64,000 bases of DNA from Allobranchiibius sp. CTAmp26 (GTDB taxonomy: Bacteria > Actinomycetota > Actinomycetes > Actinomycetales > Dermatophilaceae): contig NZ_JAGEKR010000017.1 in NCBI RefSeq assembly GCF_017565405.1, forward strand, positions 1 through 64,000, given 5' to 3'. Every line of letters begins with the position of its first letter. The first letter of the stretch is position 1. The position numbers and the translations under genes were made by a program. The notes beneath the pieces are model-generated. The model ran no database searches. It worked only from the letters and a program-made list of their open reading frames with translations, and was not told the DNA's origin. This document shows positions 5,178 through 60,420 of the stretch, piece after piece.

Positions 5178-6533
5178 ATGCCTGCGTTCCCGCAGCTGCC
5201 GGACGGCTTCCGCTACGGTGCCGCGACCGCGTCCTACCAGATCGAGGGCGGCACCACCGAAGGTGGCCGCGGCACGTCGATCTGGGACCGCTTCTGCGCC
5301 GAGCCGGGGCACATCAAGAACGGCGAGACCGGCGAGGTCGCCTGCGACCACTACCACCGCCACGGCGAGGACGTCGAGCTCCTGCGACGCCTCGGCCTGG
5401 ACGCCTACCGGTTCTCCATCGCGTGGCCGCGCATCCAGCCCACCGGGAAGGGCGCGCCGAACCAGGCCGGCCTCGACTTCTACGACCGCCTGGTCGATGA
5501 GCTCCTCGCCGCCGGGATAGAGCCCGCGGCGACCTTGTTCCACTGGGATCTGCCGCAACCCCTGCAGGACGCCGGGGGCTGGCAGTCCCGCGAGACGGCG
5601 ACCCGACTCGGCGACTACGCGACGGTCGTCGGTGAACGGCTCGGCGATCGGGTGTCCATGTGGATGCCGGTGAACGAGCCCGTCATCGTCACCCTGCTGG
5701 GTCACGCGCTCGGCGTCCACGCCCCGGGCCTGCGCCTTGGCTTCGACGCGCTGCCGGTCGCCCACCATCAGCTCCTCGGACACGGTCTCGCCACCCAGGC
5801 GCTGCGAGCCGCGGGGGCGTCCACCATCGGCATCGCCTCGAACCACGCGCCCACCTGGGCCGCGTCCGATGCCACGGAGGACAAGACCGCGGCAGCTCTG
5901 TACGACACGATCTACAACTGGGTCTTCGCCGATCCCGTCCTGACCGGCACCTACCCGGAAGGCTTCGCCGACCTCATGCCGGGTCCGGTGCAGGAGGACC
6001 TGTCGGTCATCAGCACGCCTCTGGACTTCTACGGCATCAACTACTACCAGCCCGCGGTCGTCGGCGCGCCCGGCACGATCCCGCACGCATCCGCGTTCGA
6101 GTCGCTGCCGGACGACCTGCCGTTCCAGGTCGGCCACGCACAGGGTTACCCCACGACCGGCTTCGGGTGGTCCGTCGTCCCCGACGGCCTGCGCGAGATC
6201 CTGGTGACCTTCAAGGACCGGTACGGCGATCGGCTCCCGCCGATCTACATCACCGAGAACGGCTGTTCCTCCCCCGACACGGTCGACGCGGACGGCTCCG
6301 TCCATGACGCATCGCGCATCGACTACCTGGCCGATCATCTCGGCGCGGTGCGTGCCGCCATCGACTCGGGCGTCGACGTCCGCGGATACTTCACCTGGTC
6401 ACTGCTGGACAACTTCGAGTGGGCCGAGGGATACGGCCAACGCTTCGGCCTCGTCCACACCGACTTCGACTCCCAGCAACGCACGCCCAAGGATTCCTAC
6501 ACCTGGGTGCAGCAGCAGCTGGCCCAGCGCTAG
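5178..6533 (+). CDS. GH1 family beta-glucosidase
   Basis: A 451-residue cytoplasmic glycoside hydrolase family 1 enzyme, the normal length for bacterial BglA/BglB. Landmarks are [14 protein letters not shown] near the start, RFSIAWPRI, the acid/base Glu167 in MPVNEPVIV (the usual NEP), and the nucleophile Glu360 in [30 protein letters not shown] near the end is the aglycone-site signature. It hydrolyses beta-linked glucosides or other disaccharides; specificity cannot be read off. No signal peptide. It follows the glycosyltransferase on the same strand, and its stop overlaps the convergent proA stop (shared CTAG). Confidence 0.95.
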
Positions 6534-7813
6534 CGGCGGATCTGCCCGTCGCCCTCGACGACCCACTTGGTGCTGGTCAGCTCCTGCAGCGCCATCGGTC
6601 CGCGGGCATGCAGCTTCTGGGTGGAGATGCCGATCTCGGCGCCGAAGCCGAATTCGCCGCCGTCGGTGAACCGGCTCGAGGCGTTCACCATCACCACGGC
6701 GGCGTCCACCTGGGCCACGAACTGCCGCCCGCGGGCCCGGTCCTCGGTGACGATGACCTCGGTGTGGCCGGTGCCGAACCGGTCGATGTGCGCGATCGCC
6801 GCCTCGAGCGAGTCGACCACCCCCACGCTCATCTCCAACCCGTGGAACTCCGCGGCCCAGGCCTGATCGGTGACGGGCCGGTACGGCGTGCCGGCCCGAT
6901 CGGCGTACGCCGCGGCTCGCGGGTCGAGGTCGAGGACCACGCCCGCGTCATGCAGGTCGGTCAGGAGTCCGGGCAGCACGGCGTCGGCCGCGTCGCGATG
7001 CACGAGGAGCGACTCGGCGGCGTTGCACACGCTGGGCCGCTGAGTCTTCGCGTTGAGCGCGATGTCGCGGGCCATCACCGGGTCGGCGCCGGCATCGACG
7101 TAGACGTGACAGTTGCCGATGCCCGTCTCGATGACCGGCACCGTCGCGCCGAGGACGACGGTCTGGATCAGGTCGGCCCCGCCGCGGGGGATCACCAGGT
7201 CGACCAACCCGCGCGCCGTGATGAGGGCCGTGACCTCGTCACGGCCGCCGGTGAGCAATTGCACGGCGTCGGCGGGCAGGTCACGCTCCTGCAGCGCCCG
7301 GCGCATCGTCTCCACCAGCACCGCGTTGCTGTCCGCCGCGGCGGATCCACCGCGCAGGATCATCGCGTTACCGCTCTTGAGACCCAGCCCGGCTGCGTCG
7401 ACGGTCACGTTGGGGCGGGCCTCGTAGATCATTCCGACGACCCCCATCGGCACCCGCACCTGCCGGATCTGCAGGCCGTTCGCCAGGGTGGAGCCGCGGA
7501 CGACCTCGCCCACCGGGTCGGCCAGACCGGCCAGGTCGCGCAGCGCCTGAGCGATGCCCTCGACCCGCTCGGGCGTCAGCCGGAGGCGGTCCTGCAGGCT
7601 CTGCGACATACCGCCCTCGGCACCGCGCCGCAGGTCGGATGCATTCGCGCGGACGACGTCCTCGGTGGCGGCCGCGACGGTGTCGGCCAGCGCGAGGAGT
7701 GCTGCGTCCTTCTCGGCGCGGGACAGCAGCGCGAGTCGGCGGCTCGCGGTGTGCGCGCGCTCCCCCGCGGCGCGTACCCGGGCATCCGCGGTGCTCGCGT
7801 GCGTGGTCGTCAT
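6530..7813 (-). CDS. proA: Gamma-glutamyl phosphate reductase
   Basis: ProA, second enzyme of proline synthesis, reduces gamma-glutamyl phosphate to glutamate semialdehyde with NADPH. The 427-residue length is standard. The aldehyde-dehydrogenase-type core is clear: [33 protein letters not shown], and the catalytic cysteine in [38 protein letters not shown] near the end is diagnostic. It lies downstream of proB with one membrane-protein gene between them, so the proline genes remain in one strand-collinear group. Convergent with the beta-glucosidase gene. Confidence 0.97.
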
Positions 7814-7855
7814 CCCGCGATTCTAGTGACGGTGGCGCCCGTCCACCGGCGCATC

Positions 7856-8617
7856 TCAGGTCGGGCTGACCCGTCCGCGGCGGCTGCGCACGACCGTGCC
7901 GATCACGACGATCGCGATGGTCGCGTAGGTCAGATAGTTGCTGTAGCGCGACAACGTGTGCACGAAGTCCTTGGCAGGAGCGCCGATGCGGTACCCGGCG
8001 TACATCCAGATCCCCCGGTAGACCACCGCCGCCGCGAAGTCGATCAGCAGGAACTTGCGCAGTCGCATGCCCACGTCGCCCACGAATGCGTTGACGATGG
8101 CCGACGGGAGGAAGGGCACGAACCAGACGAGGAACACCGCCGGTCCGCCGAACCGCTTCGCCAGCCGCTCGGCGATGGCCGCGGTCCGCGCCGCCCAGCG
8201 CGACCGCCCGGCGACGACCTCGATGATGCCGTGACCCCACAGGCGCCCGGCCCACCAGAAGATCCAGTCGAACTTGATCGAGGTCAGCGCGGCCATGAGC
8301 AGGCCGGCCCACCAGTAGGGCTCGTGACCGGTGCGCAACCGGGCGCCGATGTCGACCATCGCGATGTTGGATCCGCTGAACGCGGCGAGCGCGTAGGTGT
8401 TGAGCCCGAGCAGCCAGGCCCGCAACGGCAAGGTGGCGAGGCCGTAGATCCCCAGCAGGGCGACGCACGCCCAGCACCAGAGGTCCTTCTTGCCTGGTTT
8501 GCCGGTCCAGGGCATCCGCGGGTCATCCCACCACTCCCGGGATGCGTCGTCCTCGGCCGGCGGCTTCTCGCCGGGCGGCAGATCGGGGCGTGCCGACCAC
8601 GGATCGGTGCCACTCAT
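7856..8617 (-). CDS. VTT/DedA-like membrane protein
   Basis: A 253-residue membrane protein with a polar 45-residue N-terminus and about five hydrophobic segments (for example WCWACVALLGIYGLATLPL). The central part, FDWIFWWAGRLWGHGIIE followed by GGPAVFLVWFVPFLPSAIVNAFVGDVGMRLRKFLLIDF, matches the VTT (DedA/SNARE-associated) domain, including the re-entrant loop with conserved Pro and the Gly-x-x-x-Arg region. DedA relatives help lipid-carrier or phospholipid recycling and membrane homeostasis; this role is inferred. Its ATG overlaps the proB stop (ATGA), so it is co-translated between proB and proA. Confidence 0.8.
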   Translation of the reverse strand: MSGTDPWSARPDLPPGEKPPAEDDASREWWDDPRMPWTGKPGKKDLWCWACVALLGIYGLATLPLRAWLLGLNTYALAAFSGSNIAMVDIGARLRTGHEPYWWAGLLMAALTSIKFDWIFWWAGRLWGHGIIEVVAGRSRWAARTAAIAERLAKRFGGPAVFLVWFVPFLPSAIVNAFVGDVGMRLRKFLLIDFAAAVVYRGIWMYAGYRIGAPAKDFVHTLSRYSNYLTYATIAIVVIGTVVRSRRGRVSPT

Positions 8618-9759
8618 CGACGCCTCCTGCTCAGCACCACGAGATCGTCGCGATGGATGACTTCACGTTCGTACGCCGGTCCGAGCTCGCGGGCGAGCTC
8701 CTTGGTGCCCCGGCCCAGCAGAGCAGGCAGCTCGTGCGAGCCGTAGTTCACCAGTCCCCGCGCCACCACCCCACCGGAGGGGTCCACGACGTCAACGGCG
8801 TCACCGGTGCTGAAGGTTCCCTCCACCGCGCGGATCCCGGCGGGCAGCAACGACGTACGACGCTGGGTCACCGCCGCGACCGCTCCGTCGTCGAGCACCA
8901 GCCGACCCTGCGGCGCCGTCGCGTGCTCCAGCCAGATCCGCCGGGCGCGGCCCCGCCCGCGGGTCGGTGCGAAGACCGTGCCCACGTCGCCCGCCGAGAG
9001 AGCGACATCGGCGTGACCCGCGGCGGTGAGCAGCGTCGGCACACCGGCCGAGGTGGCGATCGCGGCCGCCTCCACCTTGGTCACCATGCCGCCGGTGCCC
9101 ACCCCCGACGCCGATCCGCCGATCTGCACGTCCTGCAGCGCGTCGACCGTCGGGACGAACGACACGCGCGCGCTGCCGGGACGCGACGGCGGCCCGTCGT
9201 ACAGGGCGTCGACGTCCGAGAGCAGCAGCAGGCCGTGCGCGTCGATGAGCTGGGCGACCAGGGCGGCGAGCCGGTCGTTGTCGCCGAACCGGATCTCGTG
9301 GGTCGCGACGGTGTCGTTCTCGTTGACGACCGGGACGACGCCCATCGACAGCAGTCGTTCGAGGGTGTGCCGGGCGTTGAGGTAGTGGCCCCGCCGGGTG
9401 ACGTCGTCCGCGGTCAGCAGCACCTGGCCGACGACCAGGCCGTGCGCGGCGAAGGCCGCGGTGTACGCCGCGAGCAGCACCCCCTGCCCGACGCTGGCCG
9501 CCGCCTGCTGGGTCGGCAGGTCGGTCGGTCGCCGGGGCAGGTCCAGCGGCGCCATTCCGGCAGCGATCGCGCCGGAGGAGACCAGCACGACCGCGTGCCC
9601 TTCCGCGCGATGCGCGGCGAGGGCGTCCACCAAGGCGGTCAGCGCGGCGAGGTCGAGTCGTCCGCGGGCATCGGTCAGTGAGCTGGAACCGACCTTGACG
9701 ACCAGGGGTGAGGCGCCGGCGAGCTGCTGGCGCAGTCCCTGCTCGTCCTCAGCCGGCAT
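8614..9759 (-). CDS. proB: Glutamate 5-kinase
   Basis: ProB phosphorylates glutamate, the first and feedback-controlled step of proline synthesis. The 381 residues comprise an amino-acid-kinase domain ([14 protein letters not shown] near residue 20, [34 protein letters not shown]) and a C-terminal PUA domain from about residue 280 (AVRRI-type segment [21 protein letters not shown]). Its start overlaps the obgE stop by 11 bases and its stop overlaps the next gene by ATGA, so obgE-proB-VTT protein are tightly packed. Confidence 0.97.
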
Positions 9760-11302
9760 CGTCGTCGGGATCCGCCGACTCGGTCACCTCGACCGGGTCG
9801 CGGTGGGTCCACACCTCGGCGCGTCTTTCGGCGGCGAGGTCCTCACGGGCCTCGCGCTGACCGTCCTTGCGGGCGTGGAACTGGTCGCGTCGCTCCGCGC
9901 GGGTCGGACGCTGCGGCTCGTCCAGGCGCAGGTCGGTGCCGCGCGCCCCCAGCAGCTCCGCGCCCGAGGCCATCGTCGGCTCCCAGTCGAAGACCACGGC
10001 GTTGTCGGCCGGCCCGATCAGGACGGTCGACCCGGGTACGGCGCCGGCCTTGAAGAGCGCTTCCTCGACCCCGAGCCGCGCGAGGCGGTCGGCGAGGTAG
10101 CCCACGGCCTCGTCGTTGGCGAAGTCCGTCTGCCGCACCCACCGCGTCGGCCGATCGCCCACGATCCGGAAGAGCTCGCCGTCGGGGGTGTTCTCCCGGC
10201 GCACCTCGAAACCGGAATCGTCGACGGCCCTGGGCCGCAGCACGATCCGCTGCGGCACGACCTCGGCGGCCTCCGTGCGGGCTTCCTGCACGTGCGCGGC
10301 CAGCGCGAAGCTCAGCTCCCGCAGGCCGGTGTGCGCGACGGCCGAGACGACGAAGACCTGCAGTCCGCGCGCCTCCAGGTCCGCGCGCACCATCTCGGCG
10401 AGCTCCTGCGCGTCGGGCACGTCGGCCTTGTTGAGGATCACGATGCGGGTGCGCTCGGACAGCGGCCGGCCGCCGAGCGAGTCGTCCGCGACGTACTCGG
10501 ACAGCTCGTGCTCGATGGCCTCCAGGTCGGACATCGGGTCCCGGCCCGGCTCCAACGTGGCGCAGTCGATGACGTGCGCGAGTACCGAGCAGCGCTCGAC
10601 GTGGCGCAGGAACTCCAGCCCGAGGCCCTTGCCCTGGCTCGCGCCGGGGATCAGACCCGGGACGTCGGCGATCGTGTAGCGCAGCGACCCCGCGGTCACC
10701 ACGCCGAGGTTCGGCACCAGGGTGGTGAAGGGGTAGTCGGCGATCTTCGGTCTGGCGGCGGACATCACCGACACCAGGCTGGACTTGCCGGCCGACGGGA
10801 AGCCGATGAGCGCGACATCGGCGAGCGACTTGAGCTCCAGCACGATGTCCAACGCGTCGCCCGGCTCACCGAGCAGGGCGAATCCCGGCGCCTTGCGACG
10901 CGGCGAGGCCAGCGACTTGTTGCCCAGGCCGCCGCGACCGCCTCGGGCGACGATGTAGCGGGTGCCCATTCCGACCAGGTCGGCGAGCACCGTGCCGGTG
11001 CCGTCGGTCACGACCGTGCCCTCGGGGACCGGCAGCACCAGGTCCGCACCGTCGGCGCCGTTGCGCTCGTCGCCCGCTCCGGGGCGACCGTTGCCGGCCA
11101 CGCGGTGCGGGCTGCGGTGGTACTCCAGCAGGGTCGTCGACTGAGGGTCGACCTCGAGGACGACGTCGCCGCCTCGCCCGCCGTTGCCTCCGTCCGGTCC
11201 CCCGAGCGGCTTGAACTTCTCGCGGTGCACCGACGCGACACCGTGCCCACCACTGCCGGCACCGACGTGCAGGTGCACGCGATCGACGAAATTAGTGGCC
11301 AC
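9749..11302 (-). CDS. obgE: GTPase Obg (ribosome assembly, growth control)
   Basis: A 517-residue Obg GTPase. The glycine-rich Obg fold occupies about residues 1-158 ([30 protein letters not shown]). The G domain follows with [28 protein letters not shown] (Walker A and switch I), [10 protein letters not shown] and NKADV. The C-terminal part holds an OCT domain (about 345-440) and a basic, charged tail ending in acidic residues. It acts in 50S maturation. The start is GTG at 11302 with AAGGAG 7 bases upstream. A strong intrinsic terminator separates it from rpmA, so much of its transcription may start after that hairpin. Confidence 0.97.
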
Positions 11303-11326
11303 GGAGGTACTCCTTCAAAGAAAAAT

Positions 11327-11357
11327 CGGGGGCGGGTCCGACCCGGACCCGCCCCCG
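11327..11357 (-). terminator. Intrinsic terminator between rpmA and obgE
   Basis: A perfect 14-bp stem, CGGGGGCGGGTCCG (11327-11340) with 11344-11357, closes a 3-base loop. Read on the minus strand, the transcription direction, it is followed by ATTTTTCTTTG. A GC-rich stem plus U-run is a textbook Rho-independent terminator 20 bases after the rpmA stop and 24 bases ahead of the obgE start. Confidence 0.88.
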
Positions 11358-11377
11358 TCACAACGTGGCTGAACGCC

Positions 11378-11650
11378 TCAGGCGGAGACGTCCGCCAGCT
11401 GCGCGTCGATGATGTTGACGGTCTTGCGGCCGCCCTTCTGCCCGAACTTCACGGCGCCGGGAACGAGCGCGAACAAGGTGTCGTCCTTGCCGCGGCCGAC
11501 GTTCACACCGGGGTGGAAGTGGGTGCCGCGCTGGCGGACGATGATCTCGCCGGCACTGACGACCTGACCGCCGAAGCGCTTCACGCCGAGTCGCTGTGCA
11601 TTGGAATCGCGGCCGTTCTTGGAGGACGACGCGCCCTTCTTGTGTGCCAT
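11378..11650 (-). CDS. rpmA: 50S ribosomal protein L27
   Basis: A 90-residue L27 with the family's N-terminal [20 protein letters not shown], which reaches the peptidyl transferase centre, followed by [28 protein letters not shown] and [14 protein letters not shown]. There is no cleavable N-terminal extension of the Firmicutes type. It sits 52 bases after rplU, as in nearly all bacteria, and ends at a strong terminator. Confidence 0.98.
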
Positions 11651-11702
11651 GTCTGAAGCCTTACGTGTGGAGGGGAGAGACGATCAGTCGGTCAGACTGA
11701 GC

Positions 11703-12011
11703 TCAAGAATTGATCTCGGTGACCTTGACCTGCGTCAGCGGCTGACGGTGGCCCTGACGCTTGCGGTAACCGGTCTTGTTCTTGTACTTGATGATGGTGA
11801 TCTTCGGCCCCTTGGCCGCCTTCACCACTTCGGCCTTCACGGTGACCTTCGCCAGCTTGGCGGCGTCACTGGTCACGGTCTCGCCGTCCACCAGGAGCAG
11901 CGGCTTCAGGTCGATGCTCTGACCGGCCTCCACGGAGACCTTGTCGATGATGAGGACGTCGCCCACGGAGACCTTCTCCTGGCGACCGCCTGCGCGAACA
12001 ATCGCGTACAC
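11703..12011 (-). CDS. rplU: 50S ribosomal protein L21
   Basis: A 102-residue L21, binding 23S rRNA with L20. The start is GTG at 12011 ([19 protein letters not shown] follows); an in-frame extension upstream is not conserved. Family landmarks are [16 protein letters not shown] and the C-terminal [25 protein letters not shown] lies about 10 bases before the GTG. It is the first gene of the rplU-rpmA pair, 103 bases after the end of rne. Confidence 0.97.
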
Positions 12012-12114
12012 GTCGGAACTGCCTTTCGTTGAGGCGCACTCGCTCTGGTATGACCGGCCGACAGCGACCCTGCGGTGCAGGACGTCGAAACGGTGGGTGC
12101 GCCAGCCTTTGATT

Positions 12115-14586
12115 CTACTGGTCGGTGCTGGCGGCTTCCAAATTCGCGGTGTCCCCGGCCGTAGGGGGACCTGCGGGTGCCACGACCCGCTTGCGCTTGC
12201 GACGAGCCGGCGGGGCGGCGACAACCGCGGGCGCCTCCACCGGTGCGGGCTCGGCGACGGCGGTCGCCGGCGCTTCGGCAGCCACCACGGTGGCCGGCTG
12301 CTCGGGAGCCGGTTCGGCCTGGGGTGCGGGGCCGGCCGCGGTCTCGACCCGGCGTACGTCGTCGTGCACGGCATCGATCGACTCCTGAGCCGCGTCGCCT
12401 GCCTTCTCCCCCGCGCTCAGCGCCGCGGCGTGGGCAGCAGCGGCGATCTGCGCGGCCGACGGGCCGGTCGGAGCGGGCTGCTGCTGCGGTGCCGCCGGGG
12501 CCTCGGAGCGGCTCTTGCCCCGCCGTCCACGGCCCCCGTTGCCATTGCCGCTGTTGCCGTTTCCGTTGTTGCTGCCGTTGCCGTTGTTGTTGCTCGAACC
12601 GCCGCTGTTGTTGCCCGAGGTGTCCCCACCCTTGTCGACCGGGTGGTCGTGCACGATGATCCCGCGGCCACCGCAGGCGGTGCACTCCTCGGAGAAGACC
12701 TCGATCAGGCCGGAGCCGACCCGCTTGCGGGTCATCTGCACGAGCCCGAGGGAGGTCACCTCGGCGACCTGGTGCTTGGTCCGGTCGCGGCCCAGGCACT
12801 CCAGCAGCCGGCGGACGACCAGGTCCCGGTTGGACTCCAGGACCATGTCGATGAAGTCGACCACGATGATGCCGCCGATGTCGCGCAGCCGCAGCTGGCG
12901 CACGATCTCCTCCGCGGCCTCGATGTTGTTCTTGGTGACCGTCTCCTCCAGGTTGCCCCCGGAGCCGACGAACTTGCCGGTGTTCACGTCGACGACGGTC
13001 ATCGCCTCGGTGCGGTCGATGACCAGCGAACCGCCGGACGGCAGCCAGACCTTGCGGTCCATCGCCTTGGCGAGCTGCTCGTCGACCCGGTGCACCGTGA
13101 AGAGGTCCTGCTCGCCGGTCCACTTCTCGAGCCGGCCGGCCAGATCGGGCGCGACGGCCTGCAGGTAACCGTCCACCTGCTCCCACGCCCGGTCACCGGA
13201 GATGACGAGCTTGGTGAAGTCCTCGTTGAAGACATCGCGGATCACCCGCAGCGCCAGGTCGGGCTCGCCGTGCAGGAGCGACGGGGCGTGACCGGTCTTG
13301 GCATCGGCCTGGATCTTGTCCCAGGTGCTCTGCAACCGCTCGACGTCGGCCTTCAGGTCCTCTTCGCTGGCGCCTTCGGCGGCGGTCCGCACGATCACAC
13401 CGGCGTCCGCGGGCACGACCTCCTTGAGGATCTTCTTCAGCCGGGCACGCTCGGTGTCGGGCAGCTTGCGGGAGATGCCGGTCATCGCGTGACCGGGCAC
13501 GTAGACCAGGAAGCGGCCGGGCAGGGAGATCTGCGAGGTGAGCCGGGCACCCTTGTGGCCGATGGGGTCCTTGGTGACCTGGGCCAGGACCGTCTCGCCC
13601 GACTTCAGGGCGTTCTCGATGCGCTTGGCCTGCCCGTTCTCCAGGCCGGCGGCATCCCAGTTGACCTCACCGGCGTAGAGCACGGCGTTGCGGCCGCGGC
13701 CCACGTCGACGAACGCGGCCTCCATGCTCGGCAGCACGTTCTGCACGCGGCCGAGGTAGATGTTGCCCGCCATCGAGGACTGCTGGGAATCGCGGGAGAC
13801 GTAGTGCTCGACCAGGACACCGTCCTCGAGGACACCGATCTGGGTGCGACCCTCACGCTCGCGGACCACCATGACCCGGTCGACGCTCTCGCGACGGGCC
13901 AGGAACTCGGCCTCGGTGATGACGGTACGACGGCGACCGGCCTCGCGGCCTTCGCGGCGGCGCTGCTTCTTGGCCTCCAGGCGGGTGGAGCCCTTGATCG
14001 CGGTGACCTCGTCGCGACCGGCGCGCGGCTCGCGCACCTTGGTCACCGTGCCGGGCGGGTCCTCGCTGTCGCCACTCCCGGATCCGCTGCGGCGGCGTCG
14101 GCGGGTACGGCGGCGGCCGTCACCGTCGCCCTGGGGGTTCGCCTCGGCGGCCTCGGCTGCCTCGGATCCGCCCGCCTCGTCGGCCGTGGTGTCGCCGGAG
14201 TCCGAGTCGTCACCGCCGGACTGCTTCTTCGCAGAGCGGGGCGCAGTCTTGCGGCCGCCGCCGTCGTCGTTGCCGCCCGAGCTCTGCTCGGCATCGGTGG
14301 CGCTGTCGGCCTTGCTCTTGCGCCCGCGCCCGCCGCGACGACGGGGACGAGCGCCGTCGGAGTCGGCGTCCTGGCTGCCCGAACCGTCGTTGCCGTCTTC
14401 GGCCGACGACCCGCGCGACCCCGAACTCGCGGCGTCCTGCGACGGCTCCGGGTCGGGAATGCGCGGCGCCCGGGCCGTCGTGTCCGGGGCCTGGAAGAGC
14501 AACCCAAACGCGGGTGGCGCCGCCGGGGCCGACGGGGCGCTGCCCGTGGTGTCGGAACTGGTCTGCTGGTCGTTCTCGGGGCCCAT
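12115..14586 (-). CDS. rne: Ribonuclease E/G
   Basis: An 823-residue RNase E/G endonuclease for mRNA decay and rRNA/tRNA processing. About 230 residues of low-complexity acidic and Arg-rich sequence come first, as in other actinobacteria. The catalytic core follows: S1 domain from about residue 272 ([20 protein letters not shown]), the DNase I-like domain with [14 protein letters not shown] (about 530-543) and IIVVDFIDM holding the metal-binding Asp residues, and the zinc-link CTACGGRG near residue 633. An Asn/Gly-rich linker (about 650-690) and Ala/Pro-rich tail end in basic RRKRKR. The start has GGAGGGG just upstream. It lies upstream of rplU-rpmA. Confidence 0.95.
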
Positions 14587-55958: not shown

Positions 55959-57152
55959 TCACTGGGCCGTGAGCAGTTCCTGCGCGCGCCCGCGGGCCCA
56001 GTCCTCGGCGTGCAGCACCTGCTCGACGGTCAGCTCGCCCGCCTCCGCATGGTGGTCCGCCACGACCTGCGCCACCGTGTCGACGATGGCGGTGAACCGC
56101 AGTCGCCCGTCGTGAAAGGCGTCGACGCACTCCTCGTTCGCCGCGTTGTAGACGGCGGGATACGTCGACCCGGCCGCACCCACCTGCCGGGCCAGACCCA
56201 CGGACGGGAAGGCGTCGTCGTCGAGCGGTTCGAAGTCCCAGCTCGAGGCGGTGGTCCAATCGATCTGCGGGCCCGCGTCCGGCACGTGCCGCGGCCATCC
56301 GAGGCCCAACGCGATCGGTACGAGCATGCTCGGCGGCCCGCATTGGGCGACGGTGGAGCCGTCGACGAACTCGACCATCGAGTGGATCATCTGTTGCGGG
56401 TGCACGACGACGTCGATCCGATCCAGCGGGATGTCGAAGAGCAGGTGCGCCTCGATGACCTCCAGCCCCTTGTTGACCAGCGTCGCGGAGTTGGTCGTCA
56501 CCATCCGGCCCATCGAGAAGTTCGGATGGGCCAGCGCCTGCTGCGGGGTGACATCGTGCAGCTCCTCGCGCGGTCGGCCGCGGAACGGGCCGCCGCTCGC
56601 CGTGACCAGCAGGCGGCGTACCTCGTCGTGGTCGCCGGCCTTGAGGCACTGGGCGATGGCGCTGTGCTCGCTGTCGACCGGCACGATCTGCCCTGGCGCA
56701 GCGAGCGCCGTCACGATCGGACCGCCGACGATCAGGGATTCCTTGTTGGCGAGGGCGAGTGTCGACCCGGCCCGCAGCGCCGCCAGGGTGGGGCGCAGCC
56801 CGATGGATCCGGTGATGCCGTTGAGGACGACGTCGGCGCCGCACGACGCGGCCTCCGTCGCCGCGTCCGGTCCGACGACGACCCGTGGCGCGTACGACGG
56901 TCTGCCCGCCGCACTCGCCGCGTCATCGATCGCACGGCGCAGATCCGCCTCGGTGCCGTCCGCGACGGCGACCAGCTCGACGCCGAGCTCGACCGCCTGC
57001 CGCGCGACCGTCGCGAGATCGCGCCCGCCCGCCGCGATCGCGACGACCTCGAACGACCCGCGGCGTTCGCGCACGATCTGGACGGCCTGGGTGCCGATCG
57101 ACCCGGTCGAGCCGAGCAGGGCGATCGTGCGGGGACGGACGTCGTTGCTCAC
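55959..57152 (-). CDS. dxr: 1-deoxy-D-xylulose 5-phosphate reductoisomerase
   Basis: DXR makes MEP from DOXP with NADPH. The 397-residue protein has [17 protein letters not shown] at the start, [26 protein letters not shown] (metal and substrate site), [38 protein letters not shown] and [17 protein letters not shown]. Complete. It is 33 bases downstream of the EspG-like gene and 37 upstream of rip1. Confidence 0.97.
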
Positions 57153-57185: not shown

Positions 57186-57851
57186 TCAGCTCGCCTTCGC
57201 GATGCCCAGGTGCGCCGCGATCGCCCGAGCTAGTCCGAGATGGGCTCGGGACTCGCGATCCGGCGCAGGGCTCACCACGTAGGTGCCGGTGTCACCCCAG
57301 ATGACGGACACGGTCGTCGTCTCCAGTCCGGGCGCGCGCTCGGTGACGTCGGCCCTGGCTATTGCGTGGCCCCAGGGAGCAGGCTCGGCCTGCAACCACT
57401 CACCGTCGACCACATGAATCCGTAGGGGAACCGCGTCGTCCGCGGGTGACAGGTCGGGTGCGAGCGCCGCGAGCATCAGTCGTTCCGCGCTGCCCGTGGG
57501 CAGCACGTCGAAGTCGTGCACCCCGTCGTTCGAGATGTCCTCGCAGACCGTGGTGGGGCCTGCGTCGTACACGTGGCGCAGCGTGCGAATGCCCTCGGCG
57601 CACACCTCGATCCGGTACGAACGCTCGGGATTCGCGCGCGCCTGCAGCAGGTGAACGAGCTCGTCGGGCATCAGCAGACCTTCGCCGGCCTCGACCGCGA
57701 CGCCATGTGCGCACAGGGCCCGGTAGGCGACGTCGACGGCCACCGAGCGTTGGATGGCCTGCAGCCGATCCAGGTACGGCGTGTCCACCTCGTCAGAGGC
57801 ACCGAACAGCTCCAACTCCTCATCGGTGAGCCGGAAGAGCGGTGCCGTCAT
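57186..57851 (-). CDS. EspG-like protein (ESX secretion chaperone fold)
   Basis: A 221-residue protein. It begins FRLTDEELELFGASDE, then a helix (YLDRLQAIQRSVAVDVAYRALCAHGVAV) and LLMPDELVHLLQARANPERSYRIEVCAEGIRTL, followed by strand-rich sequence with DFDVLPTGSAERLMLAALAP. This order of an LxxxEL start, a helical pair and strands about 70-110 resembles the ESX secretion-associated EspG family, chaperones that bind WXG100-like substrate pairs. The match is by eye and moderate. It overlaps the WXG-like gene by ATGA. Confidence 0.55.
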   Translation of the reverse strand: MTAPLFRLTDEELELFGASDEVDTPYLDRLQAIQRSVAVDVAYRALCAHGVAVEAGEGLLMPDELVHLLQARANPERSYRIEVCAEGIRTLRHVYDAGPTTVCEDISNDGVHDFDVLPTGSAERLMLAALAPDLSPADDAVPLRIHVVDGEWLQAEPAPWGHAIARADVTERAPGLETTTVSVIWGDTGTYVVSPAPDRESRAHLGLARAIAAHLGIAKAS

Positions 57852-58471
57852 GGGGTCACGACCGGGCGGCGCACGACCAGGAGTCGTCGCACCGGGCCGG
57901 TGCGCATGTGGCCGGGGTCCCAGAGGTCGTTTCGCGGCCCGGCACCGATCGGCCGCACCGGGCCCGTGCGCATGCGTCCGGGGTCGACGACACCCAGGTC
58001 GGGCACGCGCACGGGGCCGGTGCGCATCCGCCGCCCCGACGACTGAGGCGCGCGCTGCGGATCGACACCGTCCAGAGCGTGCGCGAATCGCGCCTGATGG
58101 CAACGGATGCGCGACCACATATCCTCGATCCGCGCCTCCAGACAAGACGCGACACCGACGGTCACAGTGCCGTCGAGAGAGGCACGTCGCGCTTCGAGGC
58201 GAGCGAGATCCGTCAACTCCCGGTCCAGGTGCTGTGCCGTCGCGATCGCCACCCGGGCCACCTCGCGAAGGCCGGTTGCGGTGGCCCGCAGCCCTCGGGC
58301 GTAGTCATCGACCGCGCCCATGTGCACCAACGCGGCACTCCCCGCCCACCGACCGTCGAGGCGGGCACTGGACCCGCAGGCCACCGAGGCGTCGTGCTCC
58401 AGGTCGTCCGCCGCCCGCAGCATCTGGCGTGCCGCGGCCCGGATCGCGACCGGGTCGGGTCGGCGGGTCAT
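57848..58471 (-). CDS. WXG100-like protein with C-terminal MRTGPVR repeats
   Basis: A 207-residue protein. Residues 8-30 and 50-96 form two long helices joined by GRWAGSAALVH with Trp42-Ala-Gly44, the WXG turn of type VII secretion substrates. The C-terminal part is different: Pro/Gly/Arg-rich with three copies of (R/H)MRTGPVR at 148-155, 166-173 and 188-195, the last two preceded by DPG. No membrane segment. It overlaps both neighbours by ATGA, so the three genes make one translational unit. Probable export substrate; function unknown. Confidence 0.6.
   Translation of the reverse strand: MTRRPDPVAIRAAARQMLRAADDLEHDASVACGSSARLDGRWAGSAALVHMGAVDDYARGLRATATGLREVARVAIATAQHLDRELTDLARLEARRASLDGTVTVGVASCLEARIEDMWSRIRCHQARFAHALDGVDPQRAPQSSGRRMRTGPVRVPDLGVVDPGRMRTGPVRPIGAGPRNDLWDPGHMRTGPVRRLLVVRRPVVTP
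57888..58030 (-). repeat. Three imperfect DNA repeats coding MRTGPVR
   Basis: Near-identical ~23-33-bp segments at 57888-57919, 57954-57986 and 58008-58030 (shared core CGCACCGGGCCGGTGCGCAT) encode the MRTGPVR units. Spacing differs (66 and 54 bp) but stays in frame. Confidence 0.75.
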
Positions 58472-58767
58472 CGACCCGGCCGCATGCCGCGCTCGACGCG
58501 GGTCTCCTGTGCGGCGTACGCCGCCGCGGCGCGCCGCAGTGCGCGGATCAGCCCCGCGCGCTGCTCGTCCAGCCCGGCGAATACAGCTGTCGACCGCTGA
58601 ATGAATCTCGCGGCAGCAGAGGGCGACTCAGCTCCCGACACCGCCTCAGCCAGAGCGAGGACAGTCCGCGCGGCGCCGTACTCCGCCGGGTGCGGGATCG
58701 CGCCGAGCGCCCGGGCGTCGTGCTCCAGGGCCTCCGGCGACACCCGCAGCCGACCCCGTCGGTCCAT
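58468..58767 (-). CDS. Small helical protein with YxxxE tail (candidate ESX partner)
   Basis: A 99-residue, Ala-rich helical protein. Helices run about 10-45 and 50-88 with a short turn, the size of CFP10/ESAT6-type proteins, though the Trp of WXG is absent. Near the C-terminus Tyr84-Ala-Ala-Gln-Glu88 matches the YxxxD/E export signal of type VII substrates. It is the first gene of the unit and overlaps the WXG-like gene by ATGA. Likely the heterodimer partner; this is inference. Confidence 0.55.
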   Translation of the reverse strand: MDRRGRLRVSPEALEHDARALGAIPHPAEYGAARTVLALAEAVSGAESPSAAARFIQRSTAVFAGLDEQRAGLIRALRRAAAAYAAQETRVERGMRPGR

Positions 58768-58971: not shown

Positions 58972-60420
58972 CTAGAGCGCCAGGCCGACGTACTTGGTCT
59001 CGAGGTACTCCTCGATCCCCTCGAAGCCACCCTCACGGCCGTAACCGCTGGCCTTGACCCCGCCGAACGGCGCGGCCGGGTTGGAGATGATGCCCTGGTT
59101 GACGCCGACCATGCCGTACTCCAGACCCTCGCTCACCCGGATCGCCCGAGAGAGGTCGCGGGTGTAGAAGTACGACGCCAAGCCGTACTCGGTGGAGTTG
59201 GCGCGGTCGATCGCGTCCTGCTCGTCGGTGAACGTCTGGATGGCCGCAACCGGTCCGAAGATCTCCTCGCGGACGAGGTCGGCGTCGGCCGGTACGCCGG
59301 TCAGCACGGTCGGTGGGTAGAAGAACCCCTCGCCGTCGCCGGGCTCGCCGCCGCAGACGACCTTCGACCCGCGCTGCGCCGCGTCGCGCACCAGGGCCGC
59401 GACCTTGTCGACCGCCTTGGCGTTGATCAGCGGACCGACGGTGACCCCGTCGTCCATACCGTCGCCGACGACCATCGCACCCATCCGCTGCGCGAGCTTC
59501 TCGCCGAACTCCTGCGCGACGTCCTCGTGCACCAGGAACCGGTTGGCCGCCGTGCAGGCCTCACCGATGTTGCGCATCTTGGCGAGCATCGCCCCGTCCA
59601 CGGCCGCGTCGACGTCGGCGTCCTGGAAGACGATGAACGGCGCGTTGCCGCCCAGCTCCATCGACAGCCGCAGCAGCTGGTCGGCGGACTGCTCGACCAG
59701 CTTGCGACCGACCGCCGTGGAGCCGGTGAAGGTCAGCTTGCGCGTACGCGGGTCACGGATGAGCGGCTCCATGACTCCGCCGGAGTCCGTGGTGGTGACG
59801 ACGTTGAGTACCCCCGCGGGCAGCCCCACCTCCTCCAGCAGCTGCGCGAGCGCCAGCATCGTGAGCGGCGTCTCGGCGGCGGGCTTGACCACCATCGTGC
59901 AACCGGCCGCGATGGCCGGGCCGATCTTGCGGGTGCCCATCGCGAGCGGGAAGTTCCACGGCGTGATCATGAGCGTGGGACCGACGGGCGCCTTCATCGT
60001 CACCAGCCGGGTGGCGCCGTTCGGCGCCGTCGACCAGCGCCCGGAGATGCGCACGGCCTCCTCGGAGAACCAACGGAAGAACTCCGCGCCGTAGGTCACC
60101 TCGCCTCTGGACTCGGCCAGCGGCTTGCCCATCTCCAGCGTCATCAGCTCGGCGAAGTGGTCGGCGCGCTCGGTGATGAGCTCGAACGCCGACCGAAGGA
60201 TCTCCCCGCGGTCGCGCGGCGGCGTACGCGCCCAGTCCGCCTGTGCCGCCGCGGCAGCCGCGAGCGCCGCGTCACCGTCGGCGGGTGACGCGTCCGCGAC
60301 GGTGGCCAGCGTCTTGCCGGTCGCGGGGTTGTCGACTGTGAGGGTCTTGCCACCCTCGGCGTCGCGCCACATTCCTCCGATGAACAACTGCGTCCTGACC
60401 TGCTCGACCGCTCCGGTCAT
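58972..60420 (-). CDS. gabD: NAD(P)-dependent succinate-semialdehyde dehydrogenase
   Basis: A 482-residue aldehyde dehydrogenase. KAPVGPTLMITPWNFPLAMGTRKIGPAIAAGCTMVVKPA, the Glu in SMELGGNAPFIV and catalytic Cys in NIGEACTAANRFLVHE are in place; the length and NAPFIV/IFGPVAAIQTF pattern fit GabD. It oxidises succinate semialdehyde to succinate, ending GABA breakdown. AGGAG lies 8 bases before the ATG. It follows the aminobutyraldehyde dehydrogenase gene by 49 bases. Confidence 0.92.
   Translation of the reverse strand: MTGAVEQVRTQLFIGGMWRDAEGGKTLTVDNPATGKTLATVADASPADGDAALAAAAAAQADWARTPPRDRGEILRSAFELITERADHFAELMTLEMGKPLAESRGEVTYGAEFFRWFSEEAVRISGRWSTAPNGATRLVTMKAPVGPTLMITPWNFPLAMGTRKIGPAIAAGCTMVVKPAAETPLTMLALAQLLEEVGLPAGVLNVVTTTDSGGVMEPLIRDPRTRKLTFTGSTAVGRKLVEQSADQLLRLSMELGGNAPFIVFQDADVDAAVDGAMLAKMRNIGEACTAANRFLVHEDVAQEFGEKLAQRMGAMVVGDGMDDGVTVGPLINAKAVDKVAALVRDAAQRGSKVVCGGEPGDGEGFFYPPTVLTGVPADADLVREEIFGPVAAIQTFTDEQDAIDRANSTEYGLASYFYTRDLSRAIRVSEGLEYGMVGVNQGIISNPAAPFGGVKASGYGREGGFEGIEEYLETKYVGLAL

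What the first reader, a model, noticed from the sequence alone, without database searches (positions are those of the whole stretch)
57186..58767. Orphan three-gene unit resembling an ESX substrate pair plus EspG-like chaperone
Three minus-strand genes joined by ATGA overlaps encode a 99-residue helical protein with a C-terminal YxxxE (Tyr84-Glu88), a 207-residue protein with a WXG turn (Trp42-Gly44), and a 221-residue protein whose layout resembles EspG. Known ESX loci pair two WXG100-like substrates with EspG, but no EccC, EccB, EccD or mycosin is in the window. This could be a self-contained substrate cassette using a secretion apparatus elsewhere, or a new family. The EspG match is moderate and made by eye.
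Basis: partly seen in the sequence, partly recalled or inferred. Interest (0 to 1): 0.7.

Follow-up and report, generated by a model that had tools for sequence, protein, structure and literature searches.

The report
EspG-like chaperone plus secreted protein pair
Three overlapping genes in an actinobacterium appear to encode a pair of helical secreted-type proteins and a chaperone with the fold of the mycobacterial chaperone EspG, in a genome where two core parts of the machinery that EspG serves were not found but a related secretion motor gene exists elsewhere.

Summary
In detail: three minus-strand genes, 58767-57186, joined by two ATGA overlaps. The by-eye EspG guess holds up. P3 (221 aa) has no meaningful Pfam or NCBIfam hit, but its family profile aligns end to end with EspG (HHalign P 3.8e-5, score 41; best decoy 26), and Foldseek ranks 17 EspG chains first for its low-confidence model. 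P1 (99 aa) is ESAT-6-like; Yxxx[DE] is kept in all 8 aligned sequences. P2 (207 aa) has the WXG turn and a PPE-like third helix. Order and place (ALDH to dxr) are shared by eight genomes including the window's. The genome gives no EccB or EccD match but holds an FHA-FtsK/SpoIIIE ATPase (EssC/TsxC type) beside tad-like genes. P3 relatives occur in 44 of 396 sampled genomes of the order; of 49 genes examined, 37 follow a protein with a WXG turn. P2's tail carries three MRTGPVR repeats under protein-level selection. Best reading: a PE-PPE-EspG-like substrate cassette served by a non-ESX type VII motor. EspG-fold chaperones outside ESX are in print (EsaE, TscG, TshG), so this is a new variant of a known kind. 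Complex formation and secretion were not testable.

The parts
58468..58767 (-). P1: 99-aa ESAT-6/PE-like helical protein
   Evidence: Profile of 8 sequences hits ESAT-6 chains in PDB at E 2e-5; C-terminal Yxxx[DE] in 8 of 8
58504..58518 (-). YAAQE (Tyr84-Glu88), type VII export-type motif of P1 (motif name recalled)
   Evidence: Tyr84 invariant in 8 sequences, D or E at +4 in all 8
57848..58471 (-). P2: 207-aa WXG/PPE-like substrate; model helices 7-38, 45-98, 105-135, tail 138-207 of very low confidence
   Evidence: Profile hits ESAT-6-like/EsxA chains from E 5.5e-6 and PPE41 at E 0.024 over a longer range; model; Foldseek PPE15/PPE4/PPE41 among ranks 1-14, prob 0.99-1.00, E 0.025-0.15
58340..58348 (-). 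WAG turn (Trp42-Gly44) of P2
   Evidence: W42 and G44 invariant in 9 sequences
58007..58027 (-). tail repeat 1, MRTGPVR (P2 149-155)
57953..57973 (-). tail repeat 2, MRTGPVR (P2 167-173)
57887..57907 (-). tail repeat 3, MRTGPVR (P2 189-195)
57186..57851 (-). P3: 221-aa EspG-like chaperone
   Evidence: HHalign P3 profile vs EspG profile score 41.0, P 3.8e-5, 216 columns; Foldseek ranks 1-17 all EspG; VIA Z 8.4-10.6 for 14 EspG entries
57813..57830 (-). LTDEEL, N-terminal signature of the P3 family
   Evidence: TDEEL invariant in 9 aligned members

Best explanation
The three genes are a type VII secretion substrate cassette. P1 (ESAT-6/PE-like, bearing the Yxxx[DE] export motif) and P2 (WXG/PPE-like) most likely pair through their helical hairpins. 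P3, a divergent EspG-like chaperone, most likely caps the tip of P2 made with its extra third helix, keeps the pair soluble and brings it to the motor, and is not exported. The motor is most likely the FHA-FtsK/SpoIIIE ATPase encoded at G000:C7:170329-174528 beside tad-like genes, not an ESX apparatus. P2's tail, with three MRTGPVR repeats, would be the working cargo, most likely a multivalent binding tail at the cell surface. SHOWN by computation: gene structure, conserved order, EspG fold of the P3 model and profile-level likeness, ESAT-6/WXG likeness of P1 and P2, selection on the repeats, no EccB/EccD match, presence of the ATPase gene. INFERRED: pairing, chaperone action, export, which ATPase is used, and what the tail does.
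For: P3 profile (50 sequences, window included) vs EspG profile (40 sequences): score 41.0 over 216 collinear columns, P 3.8e-5; reversed profiles 12.0 and 13.3, best of 100 block shuffles 26.0, best of 18 windows of six unrelated proteins' families 22.1. AF2 model of P3 (two-sequence alignment): Foldseek ranks 1-17 in the PDB are all EspG3/EspG1/EspG5, E 4.9e-6 to 1.6e-3, prob 1.00, next row 0.04 with prob 0.09; VIA Z 8.4-10.6 for 14 EspG entries, next 5.4. P1 profile hits ESAT-6 at E 2e-5, P2 profile hits ESAT-6-like/EsxA chains from 5.5e-6; the first four Foldseek rows for P2's model are PPE15 and PPE4. Yxxx[DE] in 8 of 8. Same order and place in seven further genomes. Of 49 P3 genes outside the window, 37 follow a frame with a turn-type WXG, and four more (L021, L100, L103, L104) follow a similar glycine-rich-tailed protein without it (contexts, read by eye). 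ATPase with FHA and FtsK/SpoIIIE domains, EssC model 409.7 bits. Precedent: EsaE, an EspG-fold chaperone working with EssC (PMC10653861, passages).
Against: The P3 model is weak (pLDDT 53, pTM 0.52, two sequences), and AF2 was trained on PDB entries (recalled), so EspG folds were known to it. HMMER finds no link: 0 of 9 members hit ESX-1_EspG and the P3 HMM hits none of the EspG loci L117-L166; P3 alone against the EspG profile is not significant (P 0.041). HHalign's own probability is only 70.8 %. No Foldseek row for P2 reaches E 0.001 and BAR-type helices are mixed in. EssC, EccCa and EccCb models are all below their cut-offs for the ATPase. The ATPase has matches in 51 of 58 relatives, some partial or other EccC/FtsK types, far wider than P3 (9 of 58), so co-occurrence does not single it out. 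Neither WXG100 match in the own genome is on the ATPase's contig. Eight of 49 P3 genes have no WXG-type frame that I found upstream. A small partner like P1 was not found by script in most loci outside the family, though the script also missed the known P1 of L017.
Confidence: 0.72

Rival explanations
1. Toxin-immunity reading: P2 descends from WXG proteins with a membrane-inserting glycine-rich hairpin (a toxin like the glycine-zipper LXG toxins), and P3 is its immunity protein, not a chaperone.
For: All 30 listed P2 frames from outside the family (three of them fragments) have a hydrophobic segment (max KD19 1.68 or more), and many have GxxxGxxxG; glycine-zipper LXG toxins are in print (PMC10434224, PMC12744356, seen as search listing only). 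P3 sits directly downstream, the usual place of immunity genes (recalled).
Against: P3's model has the EspG fold, and one family of P3 goes with P2s of very different C-termini. In the window P2 has no hydrophobic segment (max KD19 0.91), yet P3 is under purifying selection.
Confidence: 0.1
2. The cassette is a remnant of a lost system: P1-P3 still fold and bind but are no longer exported, serving a cytoplasmic role.
For: No EccB or EccD match in the genome; no secretion gene recognised beside the cassette (by eye).
Against: dN below dS in all three genes and no replacement change in the repeats against G002; Yxxx[DE] kept in 8 of 8; an EssC/EccC-like ATPase gene is present.
Confidence: 0.13
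3. The cassette uses a true ESX (T7SSa) system that the searches missed.
For: EspG and PE/PPE are ESX parts; two WXG100 matches, one over the cut-off, occur elsewhere in the genome.
Against: EccB: no match in the 99.96 % complete own genome though 10 of 58 genomes score over cut-off. EccD: none, though 8 of 58 score over cut-off. None of the 9 P3 genomes has a match over either cut-off (G005 has a sub-cut-off EccB piece, E 6.5e-4); nor have G026, G046 and G049, where the profile finds P3 (G049 has a sub-cut-off EccD piece, E 7.5e-4).
Confidence: 0.05

Closest known systems
PE-PPE-EspG of mycobacterial ESX systems (T7SSa; EspG3 5SXL, EspG5 4KXR, PPE41)
   Same: EspG fold of the P3 model, WXG/PPE-like P2 with a third helix, small partner bearing Yxxx[DE], chaperone gene downstream
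   Different: No single-sequence or HMMER similarity of P3 to EspG; PE and PPE N-terminal motifs were not tested; no EccB or EccD match in the genome; no known PPE with such tail repeats came up in my searches
EsaE with EsaD and EsxB/C/D (T7SSb of Staphylococcus aureus; PMC10653861, passages)
   Same: EspG-fold chaperone serving a helical-domain substrate with small helical partners and an FHA-bearing EssC
   Different: Different phylum; EsaD is a nuclease with an immunity gene, none was recognised here; P3 was not compared with EsaE, as no EsaE sequence was at hand
T7SSc-T7SSj of Garrett, Higginson and Palmer 2024 (PMC11217815; abstract, sections 7 and 9, passages), especially T7SSd, T7SSg, T7SSh
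   Same: EspG-like TscG/TshG; FHA-bearing TsdC in Actinomycetota; Tad genes beside T7SSg/T7SSh loci
   Different: The paper names Olsenella and Bifidobacterium for T7SSd, with kinase, TsdH and TsdI; TsgC and TshC lack FHA. Here an FHA ATPase lies beside tad-like genes and the EspG-like cassette is on another contig

Membership tests
EspG chaperone family (ESX-1_EspG, PF14011) | Match to the Pfam model | tested here: not met
   0 of 9 members match even at E 10; no match in the own genome; the model does find 39 of 394 class genomes. So P3 is not filed as a PF14011 member
EspG chaperone family (ESX-1_EspG, PF14011) | EspG fold | tested here: met
   Foldseek ranks 1-17, VIA Z 8.4-10.6, on a low-confidence model
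EspG chaperone family (ESX-1_EspG, PF14011) | Profile-level homology | tested here: met
   HHalign score 41.0, P 3.8e-5, decoys at most 26.0; hhalign's own probability is 70.8 %
EspG chaperone family (ESX-1_EspG, PF14011) | Binds a PPE-type partner at the helical tip | not testable with these tools
   no multimer prediction available
WXG100 / PPE | WXG turn in a helical hairpin | tested here: met
   W42, G44 invariant in 9, model H7-38/H45-98, EsxA-type PDB hits
WXG100 / PPE | Score over Pfam cut-off | tested here: not met
   P2: WXG100 17.7 bits (cut-off 27.3), PPE 17.1 (26); of six relatives' P2s scanned, only L016's passes WXG100, 27.9 bits
T7SSa (ESX) | EccB | tested here: not met
   no match in the own genome
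T7SSa (ESX) | EccD | tested here: not met
   no match in the own genome
T7SSa (ESX) | mycosin, EccE, EccA | not tested
   no search made
T7SSb | EssC-type ATPase with FHA domain | tested here: inconclusive
   FHA 67.3 bits and FtsK_SpoIIIE 165.7 bits over cut-off, EssC model 409.7 below 778.4
T7SSb | EsaA, EssA, EssB | not tested
   no search made
T7SSd | kinase TsdD, TsdH, large TsdI beside the ATPase | not tested
   no targeted search; one search lists neighbour frames by length and cluster only

The most novel reading that the evidence does not exclude
An undescribed actinomycete type VII subtype: an FHA-bearing TsxC motor encoded beside tad pilus genes exports substrate cassettes scattered elsewhere in the chromosome, each with its own EspG-like chaperone; in the window's lineage the ancestral membrane-inserting WXG effector lost its hydrophobic domain and became a soluble carrier of tandem MR[TC]GPV[RH] tails.
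Probability: 0.33. Interest if true: 0.75.

Novelty: new variant of a known kind. Interest (0 to 1): 0.52.

Why it matters
EspG chaperones are known mainly from mycobacterial ESX systems, with fold-level relatives lately reported in some Bacillota systems. A PE-PPE-EspG-like trio in genomes without a detectable EccB or EccD, with the chaperone family in about one in nine genomes sampled from the order (44 of 396), would show that chaperone-guided pairing of substrates is more general than ESX, and offers a simple environmental model for how the chaperone picks the motor. The P3 family has no Pfam name (9 members scanned), and the window's P3 none in NCBIfam.

Tried and rejected
PF10817 was a wrong accession recalled for EspG (it is DUF2563). 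Pfam, NCBIfam and PDB sequence searches with P3 gave only noise. The P3 HMM and the EspG loci do not meet at HMMER level. A viral-contig scan for P3 relatives found none. A DNA-palindrome reading of the MRTGPVR repeats was dropped: synonymous changes are seen and no replacement change (pS 0.37, pN 0.0). P3 and over-cut-off EccB do not overlap in 58 genomes (9 and 10 genomes), but chance alone gives this with probability 0.16, or 0.08 if the three genomes found by profile are added, so I do not use it as evidence of exclusion. My first rule for WXG upstream of P3 gave 37 of 49 but was faulty: it took four chance W.G matches (L021, L100, L103, L104) and missed four true ones (L014, L015, L019, L087); the recount is again 37 of 49, a different set. 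The 212-aa protein at L013:9935-10570 as a second EspG-like protein: only 56 columns, P 0.005 against P3 and P 0.2 against EspG; left open.

Full report
What is there. Three minus-strand genes, 58468-58767 (P1, 99 aa), 57848-58471 (P2, 207 aa) and 57186-57851 (P3, 221 aa), overlap by ATGA at both joints. They lie between an aldehyde dehydrogenase gene (58972-60420) and dxr (55959-57152), followed by site-2 protease and ispG genes; these neighbours were named from their sequence by eye, not by a search. The own genome is 3.71 Mb in 33 contigs, 99.96 % complete. One relative with the same cassette is Flexivirga meconopsidis (Micrococcales, Dermacoccaceae); its contig length equals that of G029:C6, a genome of the window's family, so the window is from that part of the actinomycetes (inference).

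Conservation. A search of 58 genomes (own and relatives) with P3 finds it in 9. In seven of the eight others P3 lies before dxr with an ALDH gene upstream and P1- and P2-like genes between. The eighth, G050, of another family, has P3 behind a larger protein of similar build at a place without these neighbours. In G002 a minus-strand frame with an HNH-like motif (by eye) lies between ALDH and P1 (L014 about 7054-8451), so the cassette there is unlikely to be read from the ALDH promoter (inference). Against G002, dN/dS values are P1 0.136/0.256, P2 0.178/0.651, P3 0.173/0.655.

P3 is EspG-like. No library names it: best Pfam E 0.18, no NCBIfam row, and 0 of 9 members hit the EspG model. EspG genes were taken from a PF14011 search of 394 class genomes (39 match) and extra places from its list; of the 50 loci, 40 frames passed E 1e-3 with a model built from 22 of them, and these were compared with 50 P3 sequences, window included. 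HHalign gives score 41.0, P 3.8e-5, probability 70.8 %, over 216 columns that run nearly the length of both. Controls: reversed EspG 12.0, reversed P3 13.3, best of 100 block shuffles 26.0, best of 18 windows from six unrelated protein families 22.1. The 11 family sequences alone give 40.8 over 211 columns; the remaining 39 give 39.6, but over only 74 C-terminal columns. The AF2 model from P3 and its Flexivirga relative is of low confidence (pLDDT 53, pTM 0.52, no templates), yet EspG fills Foldseek ranks 1-17 (E 4.9e-6 to 1.6e-3), with the first unrelated chain at 0.04, and VIA-align gives Z 8.4-10.6 for 14 EspG entries against 5.4 for the next. The two lines are largely separate, with the caveat that AF2 learned from PDB structures.

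P1 and P2 look like type VII substrates. P1's profile hits ESAT-6 at E 2e-5 and a C-terminal Yxxx[DE] is in all 8 aligned sequences. P2's profile hits ESAT-6-like and EsxA chains from E 5.5e-6, and PPE41 at 0.024 over a longer stretch. Pfam scores for P2 are under the cut-offs. P2's model has helices 7-38, 45-98 and 105-135 and a tail of very low confidence; Foldseek puts PPE15 and PPE4 in its first four rows (prob 0.99-1.00, E 0.025-0.047; no row reaches E 0.001), with PPE41 and EsxA further down and BAR-domain helices mixed in, so the PPE likeness is suggestive only.

The tail. P2 ends in three copies of MRTGPVR (149, 167, 189). Two or three copies of it or close variants are in six of nine P2 proteins of the family (window, L014-L017, L020); L018 and L019 have none, and L076 one poor likeness. 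Between window and G002 the 21 repeat codons show pN 0.0 and pS 0.37. A degenerate DNA pattern matches 11 places in eight genomes, 10 of them in P2 genes of four genomes and one elsewhere in the own genome (G000:C17); the pattern is not exhaustive, as it missed the copies in G020 and G006. What the tail binds is unknown; a multivalent surface-binding role is my inference.

Wider family. The nine-sequence P3 profile hits 44 of 396 genomes of the order, up to four matches per genome, and 17 of 394 genomes of the class; both counts include the own genome. I fetched 40 of the places listed besides eight earlier loci, which gave 49 P3 frames apart from the window's. By the sequence contexts, 37 of 49 follow a frame with a WXG at the hairpin turn; four more (L021, L100, L103, L104) follow a protein of similar build, with a glycine-rich tail, but no WXG at the turn; eight (L084, L090 twice, L091, L092, L102, L112, L113) have neither that I found. 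Five of those loci were viewed (L084, L090, L092, L102, L113): P3 there carries an N-terminal extension, and four of the five lie next to a gene for a DLNADLGEG protein. Of the P2 frames tested for hydrophobicity, all 30 from outside the family have a segment above KD 1.6 (three of them fragments); in the family 2 of 11 do (L077, L115). So the window's P2 looks like a slimmed relative of membrane-inserting WXG proteins (inference). Small partners with Yxxx[DE] near the C-terminus were also seen at L076, L077, L078, L079 and L097; at L094 and L096 the motif lies 51 and 59 residues from the end, the hits at L081 and L086 are in frames that look like membrane proteins, and most other order-level loci gave none.

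Machinery. EccB and EccD models find nothing in the own genome, though they match in 11 and 14 of 58 genomes (10 and 8 over cut-off). An EccC-like match lies at C7:171070-172896, in a 1400-aa protein with an FHA domain keeping GR, SxxH and NGT (read by eye; motif recalled) and FtsK/SpoIIIE domains. It scores 409.7 bits with the EssC model (cut-off 778.4). At E 1e-40, 51 of 58 genomes have a match, some of them partial or perhaps other EccC types; eight of the nine P3 genomes are among the ten best, as kinship alone would explain. A tadA/cpaF-like cluster (named by eye) is present in 11 of 15 loci examined, in three of them only as a short piece. The own genome also has a free-standing WXG100 protein beside a trypsin/PDZ protein (L012) and a second WXG gene group (L013).

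Literature. PMC10653861 (passages): EsaE of S. aureus is structurally homologous to EspG (Dali Z 10.3), and its model has EsaE engaging EssC. PMC11217815 (abstract, sections 7 and 9, passages): eight further T7SS subtypes, EspG-like TscG and TshG, FHA-bearing TsdC in Actinomycetota, Tad genes beside T7SSg and T7SSh. PMC4791881 (passages): its model has espG joining with plasmid-borne ESX. Searches for EspG outside ESX, EspG-like proteins and WXG100 in Micrococcales listed nothing that, from titles and abstract starts, describes this cassette; the library lacks most subscription journals. If P3 truly shares descent with EspG, the late-gain model for espG would need another look (inference).

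Verdict. The finding is confirmed and its EspG reading supported. It is a new variant of a known kind: EspG-fold chaperones outside ESX are in print, but a PE-PPE-EspG-like trio in this order, with an FHA/Tad-linked motor as the likely partner, was not found in print by the searches named.

Noticed in passing
L013 (G000:C2) 9525-12012: WXG protein, a 212-aa protein and an alpha/beta-hydrolase-like protein in a row; the 212-aa protein has a faint P3-profile match (P 0.005, 56 columns), perhaps another EspG-like chaperone.
   Followed up: partly
L024 (G000:C7) 6172-13531: FHA-FtsK/SpoIIIE ATPase gene divergent from tadA/tadB/tadC-like genes (named by eye); a tadA-like cluster recurs in 11 of 15 loci.
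   Followed up: partly
L024 1-5335: Terminase-, portal- and capsid-like frames (named by eye) next to the tad-like genes: a probable prophage or remnant.
   Followed up: no
L014 about 7054-8451: Minus-strand frame with an HNH-like motif between ALDH and P1 in G002, absent from the window.
   Followed up: no
L084, L090, L092, L102, L113: P3 subgroup with an N-terminal extension and no WXG frame found upstream; in four of the five (not L092) a gene for a DLNADLGEG protein lies near.
   Followed up: partly
L012 9678-10079: Free-standing WXG100 protein next to a trypsin/PDZ (HtrA-like) protein and a histidine kinase.
   Followed up: no
L017, L019, L076, L078, L200 (P2-type proteins): GGGYxGxRG-like segment before the glycine-rich hydrophobic part in proteins that precede P3; possible membrane-inserting effector domain.
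   Followed up: no
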